NCBI GenBank assembly: GCA_030592845.1
Contig: JAUVII010000015.1
Span: 1 to 32,640, forward strand
Length of the DNA: 32,640 bases
Direction: 5' to 3'
DNA from: Candidatus Krumholzibacteriia bacterium
GTDB taxonomy: Bacteria > Krumholzibacteriota > Krumholzibacteriia > LZORAL124-64-63
A program made the translations under genes and the position numbers. Below are positions 6,651 through 7,955 of this stretch, one piece after another (position 1 is the first letter of the stretch; each line of letters begins with the position of its first letter). Under the pieces are notes generated by a model. The model saw only the letters and a program-made list of their open reading frames with translations. It was not told where the DNA came from and did not search any database.

Positions 6651-7955
6651 ATGAACCGACGCCCCGCGTCAGCGAGTTCTTTTCTCGCCGCTTTGACCCA
6701 GTCGGCGATACTTTTTTCCCTCCTGCTCTTATTCCTGCTGGTGTCCGGTTGCGAAAGCACCGACACGGTAGTTCCGGATGATCCTCCATCGGCCGGTTCG
6801 GCCCCCGTCCTGGACATCGAGCCCGAGTTTTCCCAGGGGGAAGCCAATACCGTTTCGTGGACCCTTCCCGACGACGAGGGGAAAACCACGCGGGAACTTG
6901 AATTTCTCGTCCAGCGATCCGGCGATCCCCAGTTTGCCGACGAGGTGGTGGAAAGCGATTGGGTTTCGGGATCGTCCTACGAATTCACCGGCCTGGAGAA
7001 CGGCCAGACAAACCACTTCCGGGTCCGCGGGCGCAACCTTCAGGGTGCTGAAACGGATTGGTCGTCAAGCCAGTCGTCCACCCAGGACGCGGCTGCTCCG
7101 GTGGCCACGCTGACGGATATGAAAACCGAGCAGACAAGTCTTCTGTTCTGGTTTCAGTTGGCGGCCACCGACGAGCTCAGCGGCCTCGCCGAAATCGAAC
7201 TCTGGTTCGGGCTTGAAGGCGCCGAAAAAACACTCTACGGAACCTTCCCCCCCGGCGAAGTGACCTTCCAGGCGACCCAGGGTGGAACCCACGAGTTTAT
7301 TGCCCTGGCAACTGATGCGGTCGGCAACCGGCAGGACATGGACACCGCTGTCACCGAGGCGACGATCGTGCCCGAGCCCATCATCATCATCGACAGGAAC
7401 GCGGAGGAATTCGATATCACCGCCGCGGTGCTGGAATTCCGCATGGCCGTACAATACTGGGAGTTCGGATTGGGCCGATTCACCATCCGGCCTGTCATCG
7501 ACCCCTTGATGATCGGTCCGGGTCACAGGGACTATCCGGACGACGTCAACGTCACGGAAATCCTGGGAGTCGCCTACGGGGACGATGTCCGGGCCTACAA
7601 GATCGGCGACATGATGGACAAGGAGGTGGTCGACGACGTCGTCAACGGGACGCCCATTGCCGTCTGCTACTGACCTCTCTGCAATTCGGTTGTAGTTTAC
7701 AACCGCACACTCGACGGAGAAGTCCTGACGATCGCCGCCAGCGGCTGGACCTGGCATCAGATTTTTGTCCTGCAGGATTATGAAACGGGAAGTCTGTGGT
7801 TCCCGGGCCTGTCCTTTCCCGGCGGAACGGATTTTCTGCTCTGCGTCGCGGGCCCCCATCAGGGAAAGAAACTCTGGGCCAACCACTCGGGTCGTGTCAA
7901 ATGGAGACCCTGGCACGAGGCCTATCCCAACTCACTCATCATGAAGGTCAAGTAG
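6651..7955 (+). CDS. Candidate selenoprotein: lipoprotein with FN3/Ig-like repeats and a C-terminal DUF3179-like domain, UGA (7671-7673) read as Sec
   Basis: Lipobox LLVSGCES. The frame up to the TGA ends ...RAYKIGDMMDKEVVDDVVNGTPIAVCY. The same frame continues after the TGA as PLCNSVVVYNRTLDGEVLTIAASGWTWHQIFVLQDYETGSLWFPGLSFPGGTDFLLCVAGPHQGKKLWANHSGRVKWRPWHEAYPNSLIMKVK, then TAG (7953-7955). AAAGGA RBS upstream of ATG 6651. Confidence 0.75.
7687..7705 (+). promoter_or_regulatory. Candidate bacterial SECIS hairpin
   Basis: CGGTTGTA (7687-7694), GTT loop, TACAACCG (7698-7705): perfect 8-bp stem. The G-starting apical loop begins 21 nt after the TGA. Confidence 0.6.

What the first reader, a model, noticed from the sequence alone, without database searches (positions are those of the whole stretch)
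6651..7955. Candidate selenoprotein: DUF3179-like lipoprotein with UGA at the first Cys of the C-P-L-C motif
Seen directly: the track's 345-aa ORF stops at TGA 7671-7673, but the same frame runs on for 93 codons to TAG 7953-7955. The post-TGA peptide begins PLCNSVVVYNR and continues DGEVLTIAASG...DYETGSLW. From family knowledge, DUF3179-type proteins have a conserved ...NDTxGGxPVAVTYCPLCxxxxVFDR... segment followed by a conserved C-terminal half. Here GTPIAVCY-[UGA]-PLCNSVVVYNR puts UGA exactly on the first Cys and gives a U-x-x-C pair, the usual redox arrangement in selenoproteins. A truncated product would lose the core of the domain. Inference: Sec is inserted at this position. The N-terminal lipobox and FN3/Ig-like region suggest an envelope-anchored redox protein. 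I cannot exclude that DUF3179 (seleno)proteins are already catalogued; the FN3-lipoprotein architecture would still deserve a look.
Basis: partly seen in the sequence, partly recalled or inferred. Interest (0 to 1): 0.88.

Follow-up and report, generated by a model that had tools for sequence, protein, structure and literature searches.

The report
Short DUF3179 selenoprotein on FN3 lipoprotein
This bacterial gene almost certainly reads an in-frame UGA as selenocysteine and so encodes an envelope-anchored member of the DUF3179 selenoprotein family; that family has been catalogued since 2007, but this half-length, FN3-carrying version is a distinct variant and the enzyme's reaction is still unknown.

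Summary
TGA 7671-7673 lies in frame in a 434-codon gene (6651-7955) at the first Cys of the C-P-L-C motif of DUF3179 (PF11376, E=3.6e-24). The Sec reading is very well supported. Homologues carry TGA at exactly this column in 42 alignable loci and Cys in 15; two same-architecture proteins (57% identity) carry Cys. Immediately downstream, a 7-bp hairpin covaries strongly in the UGA genes (93% of cells paired, 6 of 7 pairs with compensatory changes) and is absent from the non-UGA genes (42%). The genome has selA, selB, selD (itself with a Sec codon) and tRNA-Sec(UCA). An intrinsic terminator follows the distal TAG.

DUF3179 selenoproteins are already listed in reviews (UxxC/T, first reported 2007), and NCBI already names "DUF3179 domain-containing (seleno)protein". 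New here: (i) Pfam's DUF3179 is an internal duplication with Cys/Sec only in copy 1, and this clade keeps copy 1 alone, after a lipobox and two FN3/Ig domains; (ii) the second Cys of UxxC is often A/V/T/Q, and several homologues have no other Cys in the domain, so a Se-S pair is not the universal mechanism; (iii) a weak Rieske-like fold match. The reaction remains unknown.

The parts
6651..7955 (+). selenoprotein gene, 434 codons plus TAG stop; single-repeat DUF3179 lipoprotein
6651..6749 (+). signal peptide ending in lipobox VSG-C; lipidated Cys34 at 6750-6752 (inferred from sequence)
   Evidence: translation LLVSGC; helix 16-32 in model
6843..7067 (+). first FN3 domain (residues 65-139)
   Evidence: PF00041 E=1.2e-4, just below curated cut-off; Foldseek tandem FN3 matches E 6e-8
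7101..7349 (+). second Ig/FN3-like domain (residues 151-233)
   Evidence: NF047446 OmpL47-like E=2e-5, below cut-off; all-beta in model, pLDDT >95
7557..7949 (+). DUF3179 domain, only the first of the two repeats in Pfam's 292-position model (profile 27-149)
   Evidence: internal duplication shown
7671..7673 (+). UGA read as selenocysteine, residue 341
7687..7705 (+). SECIS hairpin: stem 7687-7693 with 7699-7705, apical loop AGTTT with invariant GT
   Evidence: (control 45)
7680..7682 (+). Cys344, possible resolving partner of Sec341 (Cys in 26 of 42 UGA genes)
7842..7844 (+). Cys398, second candidate partner: Cys in 22 of 42 UGA genes, 0 of 15 Cys genes
7984..8015 (+). intrinsic terminator about 28 nt after the TAG (9 G-C pairs, then T run)
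   Evidence: z -3.5

Best explanation
The gene is a real selenoprotein gene of the DUF3179 family in a Candidatus Krumholzibacteriota-type bacterium. SelB with Sec-tRNA reads UGA 7671-7673 as Sec, directed by the hairpin that starts 13 nt after the codon (well supported, not shown by experiment). The product is a lipoprotein: two FN3/Ig modules hold one DUF3179 repeat away from the membrane (inferred from lipobox and model). Most likely function (inference, about 40%): an extracytoplasmic selenol oxidoreductase or peroxidase in which Sec341 is the reactive residue, supported by the invariant Glu325, Arg352 and Trp383. The oxidised Sec is resolved by Cys344 or Cys398 in this subtype, and by an external thiol in relatives that have no other Cys in the domain. 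The confidence given is for the selenoprotein identity, not for the reaction.
For: TGA at the same column in 42 loci, Cys in 15. Same-architecture Cys proteins P0007/P0008 at 57% identity. Covarying stem: 93.4% of cells paired, 45 double-change cells, covariation score 0.422 against 0.184 shuffled and at most 0.133 slid; the same stem in non-UGA homologues 41.6%, no covariation; at least 6 of 7 pairs in 41 of 43 UGA genes and 0 of 28 others. selA 9.5e-138, selB 5.8e-99, selD 1.6e-109 with an in-frame TGA at its active-site Cys position, tRNA-Sec 68.5 bits with anticodon UCA. All about 30 genomes with a clean UGA form have selA; 7 of 9 Cys-only genomes show none (compared by eye). Purifying selection after the TGA. 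Terminator after the distal stop. Invariant E325, U341, P342, V349, R352, W383 in 42 of 42 UGA genes.
Against: No protein-level evidence. The genome is a fragmented MAG (363 contigs, 82% complete, 4.3% contamination), so sel genes and window could in principle come from different organisms, although relatives repeat the pattern. The reaction is not supported directly: the gene is divergent from a branched-chain aminotransferase and looks like its own transcription unit, so context gives no substrate. No experimentally solved relative by sequence.
Confidence: 0.93

Rival explanations
1. TGA is a true stop or a pseudogene mutation; only the 340-residue FN3 lipoprotein is made.
For: Gene callers stop there, and many database entries end at this residue. 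The same-genus copy in G001 has a frameshift soon after the TGA.
Against: Same TGA in 42 loci, including distant lineages, conserved protein and RNA stem after it, Cys homologues, full sel system.
Confidence: 0.02
2. Sequencing or assembly error at the TGA.
For: Single MAG, no reads available here.
Against: Independent assemblies carry the same TGA with a covarying hairpin.
Confidence: 0.01
3. Sec is a metal ligand or structural residue rather than a redox nucleophile; the domain is a Rieske-like scaffold without a Rieske ligand set.
For: Foldseek: among the 50 listed matches of the full-length DUF3179 model, the only ones with probability above 0.5 are Rieske-type folds (3c0d NirD 0.93-0.95, target TM 0.52-0.57; 5bok 0.60), and four other chains in the top 50 are Rieske oxygenases. 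H-x16-[CU]-P-L-C of many members has the spacing of Rieske CxH-x15-17-CxxH (Rieske motif from general knowledge). A paralogue group has His at the Sec column. Many members lack a second Cys.
Against: Foldseek E 0.13-0.27; hhalign against Rieske gives probability about 1% with inconsistent registers; Rieske not found by Pfam. The His is replaced by Lys in the window protein. Other paralogues have Ser or Asn at the column.
Confidence: 0.2
4. Sec341 and Cys344 form a thioredoxin-like Se-S redox pair that defines the family's mechanism.
For: UPLC or UPIC in the window and 25 other UGA genes.
Against: A, V, T or Q at +3 in 16 of 42 UGA genes; several have no other Cys in the DUF3179 region examined. 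No thioredoxin-like match in the fold search. It may still hold for this subtype.
Confidence: 0.3

Closest known systems
DUF3179 selenoproteins (PF11376; reviews PMC9312934 and PMC13188914, motif UxxC/T, citing Zhang and Gladyshev 2007, Olavius algarvensis symbiont)
   Same: Pfam domain, Sec at the first position of [U/C]-P-L-x, covered by the catalogue
   Different: Only repeat 1 of the two-repeat domain, preceded by lipobox and two FN3/Ig modules; relatives here extend the motif to UxxA, UxxV and UxxQ
NCBI 'DUF3179 domain-containing (seleno)protein' in haloarchaeal plasmid records
   Same: Same family, about 30% identity over the domain
   Different: Annotated as (seleno)protein; not examined for a UGA here; covers only the DUF3179 part of the query
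Own-genome paralogue L035 (G000:C66), full-length DUF3179 with UGA
   Same: UGA-P-L-C at the same column, same hairpin
   Different: Longer DUF3179 with a second-half region, no FN3 domains
NirD / Rieske-type fold (PDB 3c0d, 5bok)
   Same: Possible common beta topology and ligand-loop spacing
   Different: No sequence support; Rieske ligand set absent
Glutathione peroxidase
   Same: By analogy only: Sec with an invariant Trp and polar residues
   Different: Different fold and family; recalled from general knowledge, not tested

Membership tests
DUF3179 (PF11376) | profile match over curated cut-off | tested here: met
   86.1 bits against cut-off 27
DUF3179 (PF11376) | covers the 292-position model (two repeats) | tested here: not met
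   profile 27-149 only; model itself is a duplication, hhalign 99.6%, E 5e-24. Coverage of both repeats is typical rather than required by Pfam's cut-off, so membership stands as a half-length variant
Bacterial selenoprotein | in-frame UGA aligned with Cys in homologues | tested here: met
Bacterial selenoprotein | SECIS hairpin just after UGA with G in apical loop | tested here: met
   bSECISearch itself not run
Bacterial selenoprotein | selA, selB, selC, selD in genome | tested here: met
Bacterial selenoprotein | Sec demonstrated in the protein | not testable with these tools
   needs 75Se or mass spectrometry
Bacterial lipoprotein | signal peptide with lipobox | tested here: inconclusive
   LLVSGC read by eye; no dedicated predictor; homologues also show lipobox-like Cys
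Rieske domain | sequence profile match | tested here: not met
Rieske domain | fold | tested here: inconclusive
   Foldseek probability 0.93-0.95 but E 0.13-0.21
Thioredoxin-like fold selenoproteins | thioredoxin fold around UxxC | tested here: not met
   all-beta domain in the models, no such match in the top 50

The most novel reading that the evidence does not exclude
DUF3179 is a duplicated Rieske-like scaffold whose cluster-ligand position became a catalytic (seleno)cysteine. The Krumholzibacteriota branch kept a single repeat and displays it on an FN3 stalk outside the membrane, giving a single-Sec envelope enzyme of a fold class not known among selenoenzymes.
Probability: 0.15. Interest if true: 0.7.

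Novelty: new variant of a known kind. Interest (0 to 1): 0.4.

Why it matters
The gene and dozens of relatives are truncated in databases at the Sec codon, losing most of their DUF3179 domain. The set collected here gives a clear SECIS covariation example, separates Sec, Cys, His and Ser forms of one family, and names invariant residues (E325, U341, R352, W383) that make the unknown reaction of DUF3179 testable. It also shows that Pfam's DUF3179 model is two repeats and that one repeat suffices in nature.

Tried and rejected
Foldseek with the whole window model was swamped by FN3 matches, so the full-length paralogue was modelled instead. No PDB relative by sequence. hhalign of DUF3179 against Rieske domains from relatives gave no support and two incompatible registers. 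Rfam gathering scan of the window found nothing. Genome context gave no functional partner: divergent from a branched-chain aminotransferase in several relatives, followed by a Ser/Thr kinase with TPRs. The 2007 original paper is not held, so the first report is cited through the reviews. Simple minimum free energy did not separate UGA from Cys genes (p=0.27), only the codon-shuffle z-score (p=0.002) and the specific stem did.

Full report
Observation. The sequence is as described. ATG 6651 opens a frame interrupted by TGA 7671-7673 and ending at TAG 7953-7955, 93 codons later. The automatic ORF ends at the TGA. Read through, the protein has 434 residues and matches PF11376 (DUF3179) at residues 303-433, E=3.6e-24, covering profile positions 27-149 of 292.

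Homologues. A search of 5.8 billion proteins returned about forty close relatives that mostly cover 78% or less of the query; those I read stop at the same residue (for example P0003, P0006, P0023, P0024, P0041). Two of the same architecture run through with Cys (P0007, P0008; 57% identity...VAVIYCPLCDS...). A DUF3179 search over 197 relative genomes reports one in-frame TGA in most matches of the related lineages. Aligning those loci to a core profile puts TGA at the column of the first Cys in 42 of them, Cys in 15, and His, Ser or Asn in a separate paralogue group.

Selection. Against eight relatives, the 93 post-TGA codons are better conserved than the pre-TGA part in seven (for example 0.62 against 0.47), with dN/dS 0.15-0.34 in six; saturation prevents a value in L060, and L050 is frameshifted. 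A strong intrinsic terminator (9 G-C pairs, T run) lies at 7984-8005, after the distal stop; terminator-like sites in the region are no more frequent than in shuffles, but this one is by far the strongest of the three found.

SECIS. At fixed distance after the UGA there is a 7-bp stem with a 5-nt loop holding an invariant GT. On 41 distinct UGA sequences 93.4% of cells pair, six of seven pairs show changes on both sides, and the covariation score is 0.422, against 0.184 in shuffles and at most 0.133 when slid. In 25 homologues with Cys, His, Ser or Asn, which encode the same protein segment, the stem has 41.6% paired and no covariation. Per gene, 41 of 43 UGA sequences have at least 6 of 7 pairs and none of 28 others does. 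The separation of UGA from non-UGA genes is the main control, because both groups share the protein-level constraint. The two UGA exceptions are L021 and L063; L063 (UGVC) was left out of the covariation alignment.

Machinery. The genome has SelA, SelB, SelD and tRNA-Sec, all above curated cut-offs, with anticodon TCA. SelD itself has an in-frame TGA within SAG-U-AAKLSPGDL. Comparing by eye, all about 30 genomes with a clean UGA form have selA, while seven of nine Cys-only genomes show no match.

Known or not. DUF3179 is listed as a prokaryotic selenoprotein family with motif UxxC/T in PMC9312934 and PMC13188914; the latter cites the 2007 Olavius algarvensis study by Zhang and Gladyshev, which I could not read. 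NCBI uses the product name DUF3179 domain-containing (seleno)protein. So the family claim is not new. Full-text search found only three papers with the word DUF3179, and the passages found say nothing on function.

What is distinctive. Pfam's DUF3179 is an internal duplication: its halves align with hhalign probability 99.6%, E=5e-24, 39% identity, and only the first half carries the Cys/Sec. The window protein and its relatives in the same bacterial family keep one repeat. It follows a lipobox Cys34 and two FN3/Ig modules, modelled at pLDDT above 95 over most of their length. A relative found in named genomes is a Candidatus Krumholzibacteriota MAG, as is P0011, so the lineage is inferred from relatives.

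Mechanism. In 42 of 42 UGA genes E325, U341, P342, V349, R352 and W383 are invariant; the +3 residue is C 26, A 8, V 4, T 2, Q 2. Cys398 is Cys in 22 of 42 UGA genes and 0 of 15 Cys genes; relatedness was not corrected for. Several UGA genes (for example L026, L034, L038, L042, L085) have no other Cys in the stretch from 70 residues before Sec to the end. The domain is almost all beta in both models. The best reading is a Sec nucleophile in a small beta domain acting outside the cytoplasm, probably in peroxide or disulfide reduction; this is inference at about 40%. A Rieske-like fold is hinted at by Foldseek but not supported by sequence.

Verdict. A real selenoprotein, of a known family, in a variant architecture; the chemistry is open.

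Noticed in passing
L017 about 1528 (G000:C242): The genome's own selD has an in-frame TGA at the active-site Cys position (SAG-U-AAKLSPGDL), so SelD is itself a selenoprotein.
   Followed up: partly
L070-L080: A second DUF3179 paralogue group in the same family has His (HPLS/HPLC), Ser (SPLS/SPLT) or, in a same-class genome, Asn at the Sec/Cys column.
   Followed up: partly
L063 (G014:C26): A divergent DUF3179-like gene has UGA in U-G-V-C instead of U-P-L-C and lacks the conserved stem at the usual position.
   Followed up: no
L098 8145-9361 (G001:C340): The syntenic same-genus copy shifts frame about 30 codons after the UGA: assembly error or decay.
   Followed up: no
27346-28236: Caspase-fold (Peptidase_C14) protein with a lipobox-like N-terminus on the minus strand.
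   Followed up: no
19018-21168: SulP transporter fused to STAS and rhodanese domains; a second SulP protein is cut by the window end at 32639.
   Followed up: no
14426-16816: 796-aa protein without Pfam match ending in many DQADRDKGTRDQ-type repeats and an RG-rich tail.
   Followed up: no
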